Made by a program: the position numbers and the translations under genes. This document shows, in pieces, positions 3,856 to 29,814 of a stretch of 64,000 nt of DNA (within the stretch, counting starts at the first letter, position 1; each line of letters starts with the position of its first letter). Source of the stretch: Elusimicrobiaceae bacterium (GTDB lineage: Bacteria; Elusimicrobiota; Elusimicrobia; Elusimicrobiales; Elusimicrobiaceae); NCBI GenBank assembly GCA_017618215.1, contig JAFZUQ010000003.1, positions 62,001 to 126,000 on the forward strand, written 5' to 3'. Under the pieces are notes generated by a model. The model worked only from the letters and a program-made list of their open reading frames with translations. It did no database searches and was not told the DNA's origin.

Positions 3856-5487
3856 TTACATCATTCCCATTCCGCCCATACCGCCCATCGGTGGCATTGC
3901 GGGTGTATCTTTCTTTTCAGGCTTATCTGCAATTAAGGCCTCAGTTAAAAGAACTGTTGATGCAATTGATGCGGCATTTTCTAAAGCGGTTCTTACCACT
4001 TTTGCCGGATCAACAACACCAGCTTTTAATAAGTCTTCATAAGTATCAGTATCTGCATTAAAACCTTCATTACCTTTGAGGTTGCGGACCCTTTCCACAA
4101 CAACGCTACCGTCTAAACCGGAGTTTTCGGCAATTTGACGTAAAGGTGCGGTTAAAGCTTTTTTGACGATATTGATACCTGTTTGTTCGTCTTCAGTTTC
4201 GCCTTTTAAACCTTCCAAAGCTTTTTCACAGCGAACTAATGCAACACCGCCGCCGGGAACAAGGCCTTCTTCAACGCCTGCTTTTGTGGCGTTTTTTGCA
4301 TCTTCAACTTTAGCTTTTTTGGCTTTAAGTTCGGTTTCAGTTGCCGCACCTACATTGATTACTGCAACACCGCCGGAAAGTTTTGCCAAGCGTTCTTGAA
4401 GTTTTTCTTTATCATATTCAGAAGTAGATAATTCAATTTGTTTCCTGATTTGAGCTGCACGTTCTTCAACAGCCTTTTTGCTACCGCCACCATGAACGAT
4501 AGTCGTGCTTTCTTTGTCAATAATAACGCGTTTTGCTTTACCAAGCATTTCCAAAGTAGCATTTTCGAGTTTTAAACCACGTTCTTCGCTGATTACTTCC
4601 CCCCCCGTTAAAACGGCGATATCAGCAAGCATCTCTTTGCGTCTGTCACCAAAACCAGGGGCTTTAACTGCGCAACCCTTTAAAGTTCCGCGTAAGCGGT
4701 TTACAACCAATGTCGCAAGGGCTTCACCGTCGACATCTTCAGCAATAATTAAGAATTGGCGGCCGCCTTGTACGATTTTCTCCAAAATAGGTAAAAGTTC
4801 ATTCATGGAAGAAATCTTTTTATCTGTAATAATTACAGCACAATCTTCCAAAACGCATTCCATGCGTTCTGAATCTGTTACAAAATAAGGTGAAATATAA
4901 CCGCGGTCAAATTGCATACCTTCAACTACTTCCAAAGTGGTATTTGCGGTTTTACCTTCTTCAACGGTAATAACACCTTCGTAACCGACTTTTTCCATAG
5001 CTTCGGCAATTAAATCACCGATAACTTTATCATTAGCGGAAATTGTTGCAATTTGTGCTTTTTCCTGTTTTGTTTTAACAGGATGCTGCATTTTTTTGAG
5101 TTGCTCTTTAACGGCTTCAACGGCCTTTTCAATACCGCGTTTAACTAAAGTCGGGTTTGCACCGGAAGTAATGTTTTTTATACCTTCGCTGAGTAAAGCA
5201 TTTGCAAGAACTGTGGCTGTTGTTGTACCATCACCTGCAACATCATTAGTTTTTGAAGCAACTTCGCGGATGAGCTGCGCTCCCATATTTTCGAACTTAT
5301 CTTCAAGTTCAATATCTTTTGCAATGGTTACACCGTCATCAATAATGAGGGGTGAACCAAATTTCTTTTCAAGAACTACACTTCTACCGCGCGGCCCAAG
5401 TGTAACCTTAACTGCATCGGCTACTTTTGTAATACCCGCTTTCATTTTTGCGCGGGCTGTTTCGGAAAATACAATTTGTTTTGGCAT
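3856..5487 (-). CDS. groEL: Chaperonin GroEL (Hsp60)
   Basis: The 60-kDa chaperonin subunit, which forms a double-ring ATP-driven folding cage with GroES in the cytoplasm. 543 residues is the normal length. Typical signatures are visible: [15 protein letters not shown] and [17 protein letters not shown] near the N-terminus, [12 protein letters not shown] near residue 86, and the C-terminal Gly/Met tail [12 protein letters not shown]. The gene starts 13 bases after groES and shares its CIRCE-controlled promoter. A run of eight G (plus-strand C at about 4600-4607) encodes the Gly-Gly of LTGGEVI. Confidence 0.99.
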
Positions 5488-5500
5488 ATATAATCATCTC

Positions 5501-5794
5501 CTAACCTAAAATACCGTAAATATCGTCTTGATGCATGATAATATATTTTTCATCATCAATTTTAACTTCACTGCCGGCATATTTGCCGTAGAGAACGATG
5601 TCACCGACTTTAACATCCATCGGCAAACGTTCGCCCTTTTTATTTAAAGCGCCTTTACCTACTGCAACAACTTCCCCTTGCATAGGTTTTTCTTTTGCAC
5701 TGTCCGGGATAATGATCCCGCCTTTAACAACTTCTTTAGGTTCGGCCGGTTTTACAAGAACTCTGTCGCCTAAAGGTTTAAGTTTAATTGCCAT
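5501..5794 (-). CDS. groES: Co-chaperonin GroES (Hsp10)
   Basis: The 10-kDa lid of the GroEL chamber, 97 residues, full length. Motifs [12 protein letters not shown] at the N-terminus and [21 protein letters not shown] at the C-terminus are standard; the mobile loop around residues 18-36 ([18 protein letters not shown]) is intact. It is the first gene of groES-groEL and follows a two-part CIRCE-like regulatory region. AGGAGG precedes the ATG. Confidence 0.99.
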
Positions 5795-5847
5795 ACTGCC
5801 TCCTGTTAATATATGTTTTAATTTTTTGGTTCACGGCTGTTTTATTT

Positions 5848-5922
5848 TTGGCAGCCAAAACCTTACACTGCTAATTAAAGCATTATTTTTGATAATTGTC
5901 AATCCCCTTGCTTGAGTGCTAA
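5848..5922 (-). promoter_or_regulatory. groESL promoter with two CIRCE-like HrcA sites
   Basis: On the minus strand: TTAGCACTC (5922-5914), nine bases, then GATTGACAA (5904-5896), where the right arm contains the -35 TTGACA. A 17-base spacer leads to the -10 TTTAAT (5879-5874). A second element, TTAGCAGTG-N9-GGCTGCCAA (5874-5848), covers the predicted start point. The CIRCE consensus is TTAGCACTC-N9-GAGTGCTAA and is bound by HrcA. The same arrangement precedes hrcA at 35017-35093. Confidence 0.9.
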
Positions 5923-5967
5923 TTATTTTTACGACTCAAACAAGGGAATTGAATAAATATTTTTATA

Positions 5968-6780
5968 TTATTTAAACCAGCTTTTTATATGATCGAGAAA
6001 AGATTTTTCCTGCTTTTGAGAGACATGTACAATAACACATGACGTATTATCTTTACCATCATTAGATGCAGAAATTTTAACTATTTTTTTACATAATTCA
6101 GTAGGTTTTAAATCAGATTTCAGAAGATTCAGCATTTCATTATCCGTTATACCTTTATTGACACCGTCAGAACATAAAACATAAGTATCACCAATTTGAG
6201 GTTTTATATTAATAATGTCACATTTAATATCTTGTTTAAGGCCCAAAGCTTTCATTAATATATTTTGTATACGAGATTTTTCTGCATCTTCTTTTGTCAT
6301 ATTCCCTAATGCTACCTGTTGTTGAACAAATGAGTGATCTGTAGTTATTTGAGATAATGTGCCGTTACGATATAAATATACCCTGCTGTCTCCTATATGA
6401 ACAATTGCCGCATTATTTTCATCTTCTATATATATAGCACTTAAAGTAGTGCCCATGCCGCTACGTTTTATATTTTCTGTAGCCAATGTATATACTCTAT
6501 AGTTAGCTAAAGATGAAGCATATAATAATTTGCGCCCTACCGGCGTATAGGCTGTTTCATAATCTTTAGGAAGTACAATTTTATTTTCTCGCAAATCCAT
6601 CAAAGTTTGTTCCAAAATACTTACAGCTAGATTGCTGGCAATTTCTCCAGCATTATGCCCACCCATACCATCAGCAACGGCACCCAAACAAAGTTCAGGG
6701 GAAATTAAAGTTGAATCTTCATTTTTTTCTCTTATCTTTCCTATATCTGTATAGGATGCAAGTTCTATATCAAATTCCAT
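5968..6780 (-). CDS. PP2C-family Ser/Thr protein phosphatase
   Basis: Metal-dependent protein phosphatase (PPM/PP2C, PrpC/Stp type), 270 residues, cytoplasmic. Visible motifs in order: EKNEDS near residue 20, VADGMGGHNAGEIAS near residue 36 (metal-binding Asp and the DGMGGH loop), HIGDSRVYLYRNG, VLCSDGVNKGITDNEM, and DNTSCVIVHV near the end with the last metal-binding Asp. It overlaps the 3' end of the Ser/Thr kinase gene by 16 bases, the usual writer/eraser pairing; it probably dephosphorylates the kinase and its targets. Last gene of the operon starting at 12010. Confidence 0.93.
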   Translation of the reverse strand: MEFDIELASYTDIGKIREKNEDSTLISPELCLGAVADGMGGHNAGEIASNLAVSILEQTLMDLRENKIVLPKDYETAYTPVGRKLLYASSLANYRVYTLATENIKRSGMGTTLSAIYIEDENNAAIVHIGDSRVYLYRNGTLSQITTDHSFVQQQVALGNMTKEDAEKSRIQNILMKALGLKQDIKCDIINIKPQIGDTYVLCSDGVNKGITDNEMLNLLKSDLKPTELCKKIVKISASNDGKDNTSCVIVHVSQKQEKSFLDHIKSWFK

Positions 6781-26377: not shown

Positions 26378-26421
26378 AACAAACCTCTAATTAAATTATA
26401 TAATTTATAAAGAGGAGTTTT

Positions 26422-27492
26422 ATGAACGCCATAAAAAAACATATTTGGGTTATTTTGAGTTGCCTTATATCCATATCGGCCTTGGTGTGGTTTATTTATA
26501 ACGGTAAAGATAATTTTCTCAAAATATGGCACGAAGTTAATACTTTTTACTTAATTTTGGCTTTCTTAGCTTCAGCCGTAATTTATGTTTTTATGGGCTT
26601 ATCACTATGGGAAACTTTAAAACTACTCGGCCGTAAAATACATATTGGCGCTTGCATGAGTATTGCTTTCGTTTCCACTACCGTAAATTATTTAGTTTCA
26701 ACCATGGGTGTTAGCGGTTTTGCTTTGCGCGCTCATTTACTTGGTAAACGCGGTATTCCTTTAGGTATCAGCGTTATGGCAAGTATAGTCATAACTGTTC
26801 TTTTATATGTAGTTTTATTTGCAATTATCTTGCAAGGAACTTTACTTTTAGTGCTTTCAAGCGGAATGTCGAGGGAACAAATTGTACGGAGCTTTGTTGC
26901 GGTGATCTGTATCGCTTTAGTAGGTGCAGCGGTAACGGCATTTTTCTTTAATAGTGAATTCCGATATAAAGGTCTTCGCAGAATATTTATGTACACAAAT
27001 AAAGTAATATATAAACTTTTCGGAGCATTAATACCTAAAAACAACTTCTCCGCTTTTACTACACAACTTGATAACGGTATAAAAACCATACACAAAAATA
27101 AAAGCAAAATGACAGCTACCATTTTATACGTTTGCGGCGATTGGATTTTTACGATTTTGATTTTATATCTTGCATTTTTAGCTATTGGGATAAAAATAGG
27201 TATAGGCATATTACTTGCCGGCTTTGCGGTTGGTATGGCAACTACTTTAATACCTGTTTTGCCGGGTGGTATAGGCGCTATGGAAATTGCTATGGCAACA
27301 GTATTTTCTCAAGCAGGTATTGATTGGGATACTGCCTTAATGGCTGCTTTAATTTACCGCGTTGTCTATTATATTATCCCTGGCATTATCAGTATTTTTG
27401 TGTATTGGGGTTTAAAACTCTCAGAACCCAATCCAATTCGGACAAACAGAACTCAAGAATATCTTGAGAAACACTCAAAAGGGGCTATATAA
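26422..27492 (+). CDS. Flippase-like membrane protein (UPF0104 / lysylphosphatidylglycerol synthase TM family)
   Basis: 356 residues with about eight membrane helices. Family landmarks are YLVSTMGVSGFALRAHLL near residue 92 and the C-terminal GFAVGMATTLIPVLPGGIGAMEIA (near 270-293), the Pro/Gly signature of the MprF flippase-like YbhN/AglD group. No synthase domain is attached, so a role in moving a lipid or glycolipid across the membrane is plausible but unproven. It heads a short operon with the CheY-like protein, whose ATG follows its stop directly. Ribosome site AGAGGAG. Confidence 0.85.
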   Translation: MNAIKKHIWVILSCLISISALVWFIYNGKDNFLKIWHEVNTFYLILAFLASAVIYVFMGLSLWETLKLLGRKIHIGACMSIAFVSTTVNYLVSTMGVSGFALRAHLLGKRGIPLGISVMASIVITVLLYVVLFAIILQGTLLLVLSSGMSREQIVRSFVAVICIALVGAAVTAFFFNSEFRYKGLRRIFMYTNKVIYKLFGALIPKNNFSAFTTQLDNGIKTIHKNKSKMTATILYVCGDWIFTILILYLAFLAIGIKIGIGILLAGFAVGMATTLIPVLPGGIGAMEIAMATVFSQAGIDWDTALMAALIYRVVYYIIPGIISIFVYWGLKLSEPNPIRTNRTQEYLEKHSKGAI

Positions 27493-27867
27493 ATGGCAAA
27501 GATAATTTTAATTGAAGATTCTAAAACTTTAGCACAAATACTAAAACCTGCCTTGGAACTGAGAGGGCACGAAGTAATTTGGATTAATGACGGCAGGCGT
27601 GCAGTCTTTGAAATTAAAAAATTTAAACCAAACATTATTTTGCTTGATTTAATGCTGCCGCATGTAAATGGTTTTGAAATTTGCCAGGCAGTAAAAAGTG
27701 ATATGGCTTTAATAAAAATACCTGTTATAGTAATGTCTACATTAACAGGGCATGAAGATGTCGAACGCGCGAAAAATGCAGGAGCAGACTATTTTATTTC
27801 AAAGCCATACGACTTAAAACAAACATTAGCGGAAATTTTAAAATTTATCCCAAACGAACAAGAATGA
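27493..27867 (+). CDS. Single-domain response regulator (CheY-like)
   Basis: 124 residues, receiver domain only. Acid pocket Glu-Asp in ILIEDSKTL near residue 7, phospho-acceptor Asp in IILLDLMLPHVNGFE near residue 53, Thr/Ser switch in VIVMSTLTGHE, and Lys in YFISKPYDL near residue 107. No output domain. It starts immediately after the membrane-protein stop and overlaps the ORF6N-like gene by four bases, so that protein may be its partner or output. Confidence 0.93.
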   Translation: MAKIILIEDSKTLAQILKPALELRGHEVIWINDGRRAVFEIKKFKPNIILLDLMLPHVNGFEICQAVKSDMALIKIPVIVMSTLTGHEDVERAKNAGADYFISKPYDLKQTLAEILKFIPNEQE

Positions 27868-28217
27868 ATTTTAGAATAATAAGAAATATACAAGTTATAA
27901 CAGATTCCGATTTGGCAAATGCTTTAGACTTATTGCCGAAAAGTTTTATATCTTTTTTTAAAAGAAATATCTCCGTTTTTCCGCAACAAACTTATTTTAA
28001 GTTAACTGAAAATGAAAAACAAGATTTGGTAAAAAACTATTGTGTTACCCATGCCGAACGTTTACGTTATGCAAAACGTTTGCCTTATGTTTTTACTCCG
28101 AACGGTGTTGTTCTTTGTATTTTCCTTCTAAAAAAATGCAAAAAAGCCGCAGAACTCCGCATGAAGTTACTTACCTCAAATAATCAAGACGAAATCATAA
28201 ATACCCTATCAAAATAA
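27864..28217 (+). CDS. ORF6N-like domain protein
   Basis: 117 residues. The sequence resembles the ORF6N domain usually seen in phage and mobile-element antirepressors: RNISVFPQQTYFKLTENEKQDL (about 34-55) matches the 'RN..RFP.dFmFqLt..E' segment, and RLPYVFTPNGVVLCIFLLK (about 72-90) matches the 'yaFTEqGvamL' segment. Here it follows a response regulator in a chromosomal operon, translationally coupled by ATGA, with no phage genes near. It may bind DNA or act as an adaptor. The assignment is by eye; moderate certainty. Confidence 0.62.
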   Translation: MNFRIIRNIQVITDSDLANALDLLPKSFISFFKRNISVFPQQTYFKLTENEKQDLVKNYCVTHAERLRYAKRLPYVFTPNGVVLCIFLLKKCKKAAELRMKLLTSNNQDEIINTLSK

Positions 28218-28218
28218 T

Positions 28219-28254
28219 AGGACCAAGGACCTATTTTTATAAGGGTCCTTTTGC
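28219..28254 (+). terminator. Possible terminator of the ORF6N operon, overlapping a GGTC box
   Basis: AAGGACC (28225-28231) pairs with GGTCCTT (28244-28250) across a 12-base loop, followed by TTTTG. The right arm is also the GGTC box of the next promoter, so the hairpin may instead be an inverted pair of regulator sites. Confidence 0.5.
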
Positions 28255-28285
28255 TCTTGAAATAATTTCTATTTAATGTCATTAT
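28225..28285 (+). promoter_or_regulatory. Promoter with GGTC box (503-residue exported protein)
   Basis: TTGAAA (28257-28262), 17-base spacer, weak -10 CATTAT (28280-28285) preceded by TGT. GGTCCTTTTGCTC starts at 28244, 13 bases before the -35. An inverted copy (GGACC) lies at 28227-28231. Confidence 0.65.
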
Positions 28286-28302: not shown

Positions 28303-29814
28303 ATGAAATTGAAATACTTACTTTTTATAATATTTTCTTTAATATTAATTTTACCAATGAATGCTTGGGATATTAATTTTGATTTTAAAAAAGAGCAACA
28401 AGAAATTTCAAATGTTATCCAAAATTCCCAAGTAGAAAATGCCAAAAAAGAAATGCTGGACGCTTTAGCGCGAGTAAATAGATCAAAAGAAATAAGAGAT
28501 CCAGAAGCAATAATGAATTTTGGTAAATCAATGAAAATGAATATGAAATTCCTACCTAAAAATGAGAGAATGCCCTTTTTAAAGCAGTTAAGAGCAGGGT
28601 TAGTTGATGAAACGCTTAAATTAAAAGCCGATTATTATTTTATAGCGGAAGAAGCCCTAGCAAAGCCTAATTTTACTAAAACAACAGTCGTAAAATCAGC
28701 AGAAACTTTTGTTGATAAACTATATAAAATTTTGTTCTCCGGTAATTCTCAAAAACTTGAAAATGCTACAAGAATTTTAAAACAAGATATAATAAAATTG
28801 GTATCACAAGGAGATGTGGAATTATTTGAAACTTTTATAAAGACATATACCTTGCAAGCTAACAAATATGGACTTATGTCAAGATCTTTAAACCTTTTTC
28901 TTTATGAATTGATGAACCATAATTTACCGTTAACTTTAATGAAAAATACAACTGTTACTAAGGAGGCCTTAGTAAGAAACACTATTCCAATATTACTGAG
29001 AAATTTTTCTTGGAAAAAGTTTGTAACAGAACATCAAGGAACGATATTGCAAGATTTATTTAATTCCCAACAGGCAAATAAGTTTCATTTATCGAACTTT
29101 ACAAAAATGATAGGTGACACTTATCTAGATAAAGCGATGTCCCAGGCAGAACGGGAATTACAGTCAAAGATATCTGTTTTAGCGAATATGTCTCGTATAG
29201 CAGAACACAGATACCAAGAATTAAAACCAAAAGCATCCCATGGCTTTGTTGGGGAAAGAACTTTATTTAGAAGAGTATCCCTTGGGGATAATTTCGGAGG
29301 AGATCTTACTCCTCAAAATGCTAAAGAATTATCAAGGATGATTCGAACTATTCCGGCATCAAAAATGGAACATGTTTTACCGAATGCAAAAGAATGGATT
29401 AAAAGTTTTTCCAGTTGGGCTAAATCAAGCATTAAATCAAAAGGAAATACCATACTTACAATCACAACAATGATTGCCTTAGTAGCAGCAGAAGAATTTA
29501 TAAAATCTTATACGAGTTATAACCCTTCAGAAAGTTATTTAAATTCAATAGATGAAATAACTGACAACCTTAGTATTGGTAATAATATAAAATTAGTTTA
29601 TAATACTGTTTATGATAATAATTTTGCCAAACATTTCTCTGCTTATACTGAAGAAGGCAATTTAACAGAAGATGAACAACTTGCATACATGGAAACATTT
29701 GACAATTTTGAAACAGCAATCTATGCAAGTTATTTCCAAAACAGTGATAATATTACCACCGAAAAAGCTTGGCAATGCTTTGCTTTAAATGAAAATTGCA
29801 CTAACGAAATTTAG
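28303..29814 (+). CDS. Exported orphan protein, 503 residues
   Basis: No family recognised. Signal peptide MKLKYLLFIIFSLILILPMNAW. The mature protein is almost all helical, rich in Lys, Glu, Asn and Leu, with coiled-coil-like stretches (about 30-110) and one hydrophobic segment late in the chain (about 383-400, ILTITTMIALVAAEEF). Size and layout (signal, long helical part, late hydrophobic patch) recall the 415-residue protein at 12122, without clear sequence identity. Ribosome site AAGGAAT. It converges on dxr with 12 bases between stops. Confidence 0.75.
   Translation: MKLKYLLFIIFSLILILPMNAWDINFDFKKEQQEISNVIQNSQVENAKKEMLDALARVNRSKEIRDPEAIMNFGKSMKMNMKFLPKNERMPFLKQLRAGLVDETLKLKADYYFIAEEALAKPNFTKTTVVKSAETFVDKLYKILFSGNSQKLENATRILKQDIIKLVSQGDVELFETFIKTYTLQANKYGLMSRSLNLFLYELMNHNLPLTLMKNTTVTKEALVRNTIPILLRNFSWKKFVTEHQGTILQDLFNSQQANKFHLSNFTKMIGDTYLDKAMSQAERELQSKISVLANMSRIAEHRYQELKPKASHGFVGERTLFRRVSLGDNFGGDLTPQNAKELSRMIRTIPASKMEHVLPNAKEWIKSFSSWAKSSIKSKGNTILTITTMIALVAAEEFIKSYTSYNPSESYLNSIDEITDNLSIGNNIKLVYNTVYDNNFAKHFSAYTEEGNLTEDEQLAYMETFDNFETAIYASYFQNSDNITTEKAWQCFALNENCTNEI

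What the first reader, a model, noticed from the sequence alone, without database searches (positions are those of the whole stretch)
27493..28217. CheY-like receiver coupled to an ORF6N-like protein
ORF6N domains are known mainly from phage antirepressors. Here a minimal ORF6N-like protein overlaps a stand-alone receiver by ATGA and follows a flippase-like membrane gene, with no phage genes nearby. It may be a split response regulator: receiver in one chain, output in another.
Basis: inference. Interest (0 to 1): 0.6.

Follow-up and report, generated by a model that had tools for sequence, protein, structure and literature searches.

The report
Host-domesticated ORF6N protein beside a receiver
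In one genus of gut Elusimicrobiaceae, a small protein of a family best known from phage switches has settled permanently next to a much older stand-alone signalling receiver; it is a real, selected gene, but it joined the receiver late and nothing yet shows that the two work as one regulator.

Summary
27493-27867 encodes a stand-alone receiver (Response_reg, 78 bits) and 27864-28217 a 117-aa ORF6N protein (PF10543, 50.1 bits, cut-off 27.8), overlapping by ATGA, directly after a flippase-like gene. Comparison adds three things. (1) ORF6N sits at this locus in all 16 genomes of the genus in which the receiver was found; it is under purifying selection (dN/dS 0.03-0.11) and its tree matches the flippase+receiver tree: one acquisition, then vertical inheritance. 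(2) The receiver is far older: it is in all 51 good genomes of the family, mostly without ORF6N. The deeper gene order is flippase - hexapeptide protein - receiver - endonuclease-III-like - TPR; the slot after the receiver has been EndoIII-like, empty, and here ORF6N. (3) The pair can be parted: insertions split it in G010 and apparently G009, and the receiver shows only two genus-specific fixed changes. The modelled fold (pLDDT 88.7) matches viral KilA-N-type proteins; the protein is basic and lacks the usual C-terminal tail. Best reading: a host-domesticated DNA-binding regulator co-expressed with an orphan receiver. A 'split response regulator' stays possible (about 0.25) but unshown.

The parts
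27493..27867 (+). stand-alone CheY-like receiver, 124 aa; E8, D9, D52, S82 and K104 conserved
   Evidence: Pfam Response_reg 78 bits; E8, D9, D52, S82/T83, K104 invariant in 45 orthologues compared; one orthologue per genome across the family, with one partial exception
27864..28217 (+). tail-less ORF6N protein, 117 aa, basic (net +9), predicted winged-helix-like DNA-binding fold
   Evidence: Pfam PF10543 50.1 bits; genus-wide at this locus; dN/dS 0.03-0.11; model pLDDT 88.7, BFVD KilA-N proteins TM 0.70; charge
27864..27867 (+). ATGA stop/start overlap of receiver and ORF6N
   Evidence: sequence; gap -4 in 8 of 16 genomes, +4 to +6 in 5, interrupted or wide in 3
26422..27492 (+). flippase-like membrane protein (LPG_synthase_TM / TIGR00374), first gene of the group
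   Evidence: Pfam 116 bits, NCBIfam TIGR00374 103 bits; same position across the family
26393..26406 (.). palindrome AAATTATATAATTT in the divergent uvrA/flippase promoter region; holds a TATAAT on each strand
   Evidence: conserved in g1 and in sister genera without ORF6N; the 16-base form occurs once in this genome
28225..28250 (+). hairpin just after ORF6N, possibly a weak terminator (short T tail)
   Evidence: fold of 28214-28262: -12.4 kcal/mol, z -1.9; not found by the terminator scan; inconclusive

Best explanation
The 117-aa gene is a host-domesticated ORF6N protein. Shown: an ORF6N gene entered an old chromosomal gene row, between an orphan receiver and a TPR gene, once in the ancestor of this genus, and has since been inherited vertically under purifying selection, without the C-terminal tail that typical ORF6N proteins carry. 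Inferred: it is a small basic DNA-binding protein (winged-helix-like KilA-N/Bro-type fold) that acts as a transcriptional regulator, made together with the flippase and the receiver (ATGA overlap or spacing of at most 6 nt in 13 of 16 genomes; in one clade its ribosome-binding site lies inside the receiver gene). The receiver is an older, phosphorylatable single-domain regulator whose long-standing neighbours are the flippase, the hexapeptide protein and the TPR protein; it probably keeps its older job. Most likely ORF6N works on DNA on its own and shares only expression with the receiver; direct control by the phosphorylated receiver is possible but secondary.
For: Family. Genus-wide at this locus and genus-only: (this type scores 112-209 bits in the genus; the next best in 295 genomes of the phylum is 73 bits). 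Purifying selection. Congruent trees of ORF6N and flippase+receiver. Insertion point between receiver and TPR: G008 keeps receiver-ORF6N-TPR and G009 keeps ORF6N-ATGA-TPR; TPR is still found in 16 of 18 genomes of the genus, in most at another place. Older gene orders without ORF6N. Fold. Basic charge and ribosome-binding site within the receiver gene.
Against: No DNA binding or target site is shown. The one strongly conserved palindrome in the operon promoter is equally conserved in genera without ORF6N, so it is not evidence of an ORF6N operator. PDB-side structural matches are middling (Z up to 6.8), and the best are eukaryotic DNA-binding or chromatin domains. Tight coupling to the receiver in 13 of 16 genomes could mean more than co-expression. 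The source of the ORF6N gene (phage or chromosomal) is not resolved; no close viral relative was found.
Confidence: 0.55

Rival explanations
1. Split response regulator: the receiver, phosphorylated in trans by a histidine kinase, binds the ORF6N protein and switches its DNA binding, so that input and output are two chains made from one operon.
For: Pair present in all 16 genomes of the genus in which the receiver was found; ATGA or at most 6-nt spacing in 13 of 16; receiver phosphorylation residues invariant; single-domain receivers that bind DNA-binding proteins are known (McvR, PMC8995066); one genus-specific fixed change (H57) lies in the loop next to D52.
Against: Receiver conserved family-wide without ORF6N; only two fixed genus-specific changes in it, no sign of a remodelled face; adjacency broken in G010 and apparently G009; in G009 the ATGA overlap is with TPR; 27 other ORF6N loci have no receiver nearby.
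Confidence: 0.25
2. Anti-mobile-element or phage-control role: the domesticated ORF6N interferes with repressor/antirepressor switches of incoming phages or prophages, and its place beside the receiver is incidental.
For: ORF6N belongs to the Bro network of phage-associated DNA-interacting domains (PMC10111431; phrog_4792); small stand-alone relatives of such domains could act as decoys (inference).
Against: Vertical inheritance at one fixed chromosomal locus under strong constraint; no prophage genes around; no defence-type context seen in the window.
Confidence: 0.12
3. ORF6N is a passenger: a slowly decaying leftover of a mobile element with no function.
For: A truncated second copy of the ORF6N start, a Bro-N gene and an IS-like gene lie near the gene in G009; the tail is lost; the G013 copy departs from the family after residue 65, close to a contig end.
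Against: dN/dS 0.03-0.11 at near-saturated dS and 28 invariant residues among 13 full-length proteins.
Confidence: 0.03

Closest known systems
ORF6N-domain proteins (PF10543), Bro-network DNA-interacting proteins of phages and bacterial chromosomes
   Same: Covers the ORF6N profile 5-82 of 86 above the curated cut-off; conserved K and RN in the second predicted helix; modelled fold like viral KilA-N and antirepressor proteins
   Different: Only 117 aa, lacks the C-terminal helical tail, often ending in IGF, of the longer relatives; fixed NYC..HAERLRYAKR..P block in place of the usual loop; fixed chromosomal locus, not phage-borne
Single-domain response regulators acting through partner proteins (McvR PMC8995066; EpsW PMC12802240)
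   Same: Receiver alone, intact phospho-acceptor site, must act through another chain; McvR binds DNA-binding proteins
   Different: No interaction tested here; the putative DNA-binding partner is an ORF6N protein that arrived after the receiver
Fungal SBF cell-cycle regulator with KilA-N domain (PMC4862756)
   Same: A Bro-network-type DNA-binding domain taken up by a host lineage and kept in host regulation (the abstract reports acquisition of SBF by horizontal gene transfer)
   Different: Different domain of the network, different host; function here unknown

Membership tests
ORF6N domain (PF10543) | score over the curated cut-off across the domain | tested here: met
   50.1 bits vs 27.8, profile 5-82/86; G008 orthologue 55.2 bits
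ORF6N domain (PF10543) | KilA-N/Bro-like modelled fold | tested here: met
   model pLDDT 88.7; BFVD KilA-N DNA-binding domain proteins TM 0.70, prob 1.00
Phage antirepressor | C-terminal partner domain and phage or prophage context | tested here: not met
   117 aa, ends just after the domain; chromosomal gene row
ORF6N domain (PF10543) | binds DNA | not testable with these tools
   only basic charge and fold
Single-domain response regulator | receiver domain without output domain; acidic pair, phospho-Asp, S/T and Lys | tested here: met
Single-domain response regulator | is phosphorylated by a kinase | not testable with these tools
   no histidine kinase gene beside it; HATPase_c proteins elsewhere in the genome, one of them within the window
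Split response regulator (receiver + separate output chain) | physical, phosphorylation-dependent interaction of the two chains | not testable with these tools
   read-through single-chain model was low confidence in the ORF6N half
Split response regulator (receiver + separate output chain) | pair inherited together wherever the receiver is | tested here: not met
   receiver in 51/51 good family genomes, ORF6N beside it only in one genus
Split response regulator (receiver + separate output chain) | pair conserved within the lineage that has it | tested here: met
   both genes in 16/16 genus genomes with the receiver; adjacent in 14, separated in G010 and on different contigs in G009

The most novel reading that the evidence does not exclude
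A phage-type DNA-binding protein has been recruited as the output half of a two-chain response regulator: an ancient orphan receiver gained a new transcriptional output in one gut genus by acquiring a neighbouring ORF6N gene, without gene fusion.
Probability: 0.22. Interest if true: 0.65.

Novelty: new variant of a known kind. Interest (0 to 1): 0.36.

Why it matters
It is a clean case of a phage-associated regulatory domain becoming a fixed host gene in a bacterium: one acquisition, 16 genomes, strong constraint, known insertion point. If the receiver controls it, it would show how two-component pathways can gain new outputs through neighbouring genes rather than by domain fusion. It also warns that ATGA coupling alone does not make a functional pair: the slot after this receiver has held different genes in different lineages.

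Tried and rejected
Palindrome AAATTATATAATTT in the uvrA/flippase promoter as an ORF6N operator: rejected as specific evidence, because it is equally conserved in sister genera without ORF6N. Decaying passenger gene: rejected by dN/dS. Recent phage origin: no close viral relative in IMG/VR and only 28-33% matches in INPHARED. Search for solved structures by sequence: nothing. Modelling receiver and ORF6N as one chain, by reading through the stop in three genomes where they are in frame: ORF6N half low confidence with only three sequences, uninformative. Foldseek against PDB: no confident match; the VIA-align second look gave winged-helix-type and chromatin-factor domains at Z 5 to 6.8 only. 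G006's ORF6N hit was set aside: it is an ordinary phage-type fragment at a contig end, not this gene. Literature on ORF6N: five papers in the library hold the word; their titles and abstracts show none on a receiver partner.

Full report
What is there. The window lies in a 1.34-Mb genome assembly of the Elusimicrobiaceae (the named relatives are Elusimicrobiaceae MAGs). At 26422-28217 three genes lie head to tail on the + strand: a flippase-like membrane protein, a stand-alone receiver and a 117-aa protein. The third is a true ORF6N protein: 50.1 bits against a cut-off of 27.8, with a weaker link to phage antirepressors in PHROGs. It is the only ORF6N found in this genome.

How conserved. Among 18 genomes of the genus, the receiver was found in 16 and this ORF6N type in the same 16; G006 and G007 are incomplete and gave neither. 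Three of the 16 ORF6N reads are cut by contig ends (G001, G010) or depart from the family near one (G013). Spacing is -4 (ATGA) in eight genomes, +4 to +6 in five, 158 nt in G008, 2387 nt in G010 with a reverse-strand gene between, and on separate contigs in G009, with an IS-like gene, a Sel1-type repeat protein and a Bro-N protein before ORF6N. Pairwise dN/dS of ORF6N within three clades is 0.03-0.11, like that of the receiver (0.02-0.16) and about that of the flippase or slightly above; dS is high in many pairs, so the values are rough, but the constraint is clear. The ORF6N tree has the same main clades as the flippase+receiver tree. So the gene was gained once and kept.

How old. The receiver has an orthologue in all 51 good genomes of the family; ORF6N is beside it only in this genus. 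A profile of the genus proteins scores 112-209 bits in the genus and at most 73 bits elsewhere in 295 genomes of the phylum; the 15 best outside matches that were fetched are mostly longer proteins (about 170-220 aa) of the ordinary ORF6N type. In the sister genera the order is flippase - hexapeptide (gamma-carbonic-anhydrase-like) protein - receiver - TPR protein. In another family of the same order, and in two deeper genera of the family itself, an EndoIII-like HhH-GPD glycosylase gene sits between receiver and TPR. The slot after the receiver has therefore changed hands: EndoIII-like, empty, ORF6N. In this genus TPR remains directly after ORF6N in G008 and G009 but has moved elsewhere in most others; the window's clade and the G003/G004/G016 clade have also lost the hexapeptide gene. 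The clade of G008 to G010 branches first in the rooted tree, with weak support.

What it probably does. The ORF6N model is confident (pLDDT 88.7) and resembles viral KilA-N DNA-binding-domain proteins (TM 0.70, probability 1.00). VIA-align lists DNA-binding or chromatin-associated domains of winged-helix type at Z 5 to 6.8, which is middling. The proteins are basic, +6 to +10 in the full-length ones. Canonical relatives continue for some 50-90 residues into a helical tail that often ends in IGF; here the chain stops soon after the domain. DNA binding is thus inferred from family and fold, not shown. In one clade (G001, G005, G012, G015, G017) an AAAGGAG ribosome-binding site for ORF6N lies within the last codons of the receiver gene, which points to translational coupling.

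Is it a split response regulator? The receiver has all phosphorylation residues and no output domain, no kinase gene sits beside it, and the genome holds seven HATPase_c and seven receiver matches in all. Single-domain receivers that act on DNA-binding proteins are known (McvR, PMC8995066) and one acts on a polysaccharide enzyme (EpsW, PMC12802240), so the mechanism would not be new in kind. But the receiver long predates ORF6N, shows only two genus-specific fixed changes (H57 for K/R and I63 for V), and tolerates separation from ORF6N. None of 27 other ORF6N loci shows a receiver within about 1.5 kb (some are cut by contig ends). I put the split-regulator reading at about 0.25 and an independent DNA-binding regulator, co-expressed with the receiver, at about 0.55.

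Promoter. The 44-bp gap between uvrA and the flippase holds AAATTATATAATTT, conserved in nearly all genomes examined in g1, g2 and g3, including those without ORF6N. It holds TATAAT on both strands, so a symmetric divergent promoter is the simplest reading. The 16-base form occurs once in this genome.

Verdict. It is a well-documented domestication of an ORF6N gene with an unknown target, beside an older orphan receiver.

Noticed in passing
window 26393-26406: Palindrome AAATTATATAATTT in the uvrA/flippase divergent promoter is conserved across three genera (including a genome whose size fits E. minutum) while the flanks are not; a symmetric double TATAAT or an operator of an unknown factor. 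The 16-base form occurs once in the genome.
   Followed up: partly
L114 4208-5344, L115 5094-6185, L116 4756-5901, L118 4746-5852: After leaving the receiver operon, the TPR gene lies directly after pilT in G017 and G005 and at the end of a pseudopilin gene row in G000 and G014, hinting that receiver and TPR may relate to type IV pilus functions.
   Followed up: partly
L071 909-3111: In G009 a truncated second copy of the ORF6N start, a Sel1-type repeat protein and a Bro-N gene lie before ORF6N: two members of the Bro network side by side after insertions.
   Followed up: partly
window 28303-29814: 503-aa protein with a signal-peptide-like start and no confident Pfam match, found after ORF6N only in the window's clade and evolving fast (45-49% identity where the flippase has 89-93%).
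   Followed up: no
G000:C11, around 1506 (L162): An open frame of 6730 aa that gives a weak receiver-domain match in a 1.34-Mb genome; a giant protein worth a look.
   Followed up: no
L192 2521-3270, L196 2710-3429, L096 3389-4036, L088 about 5434-6140: An EndoIII-like HhH-GPD glycosylase gene sits between receiver and TPR in another family of the order and in two deeper genera of this family, next to a signalling protein.
   Followed up: partly
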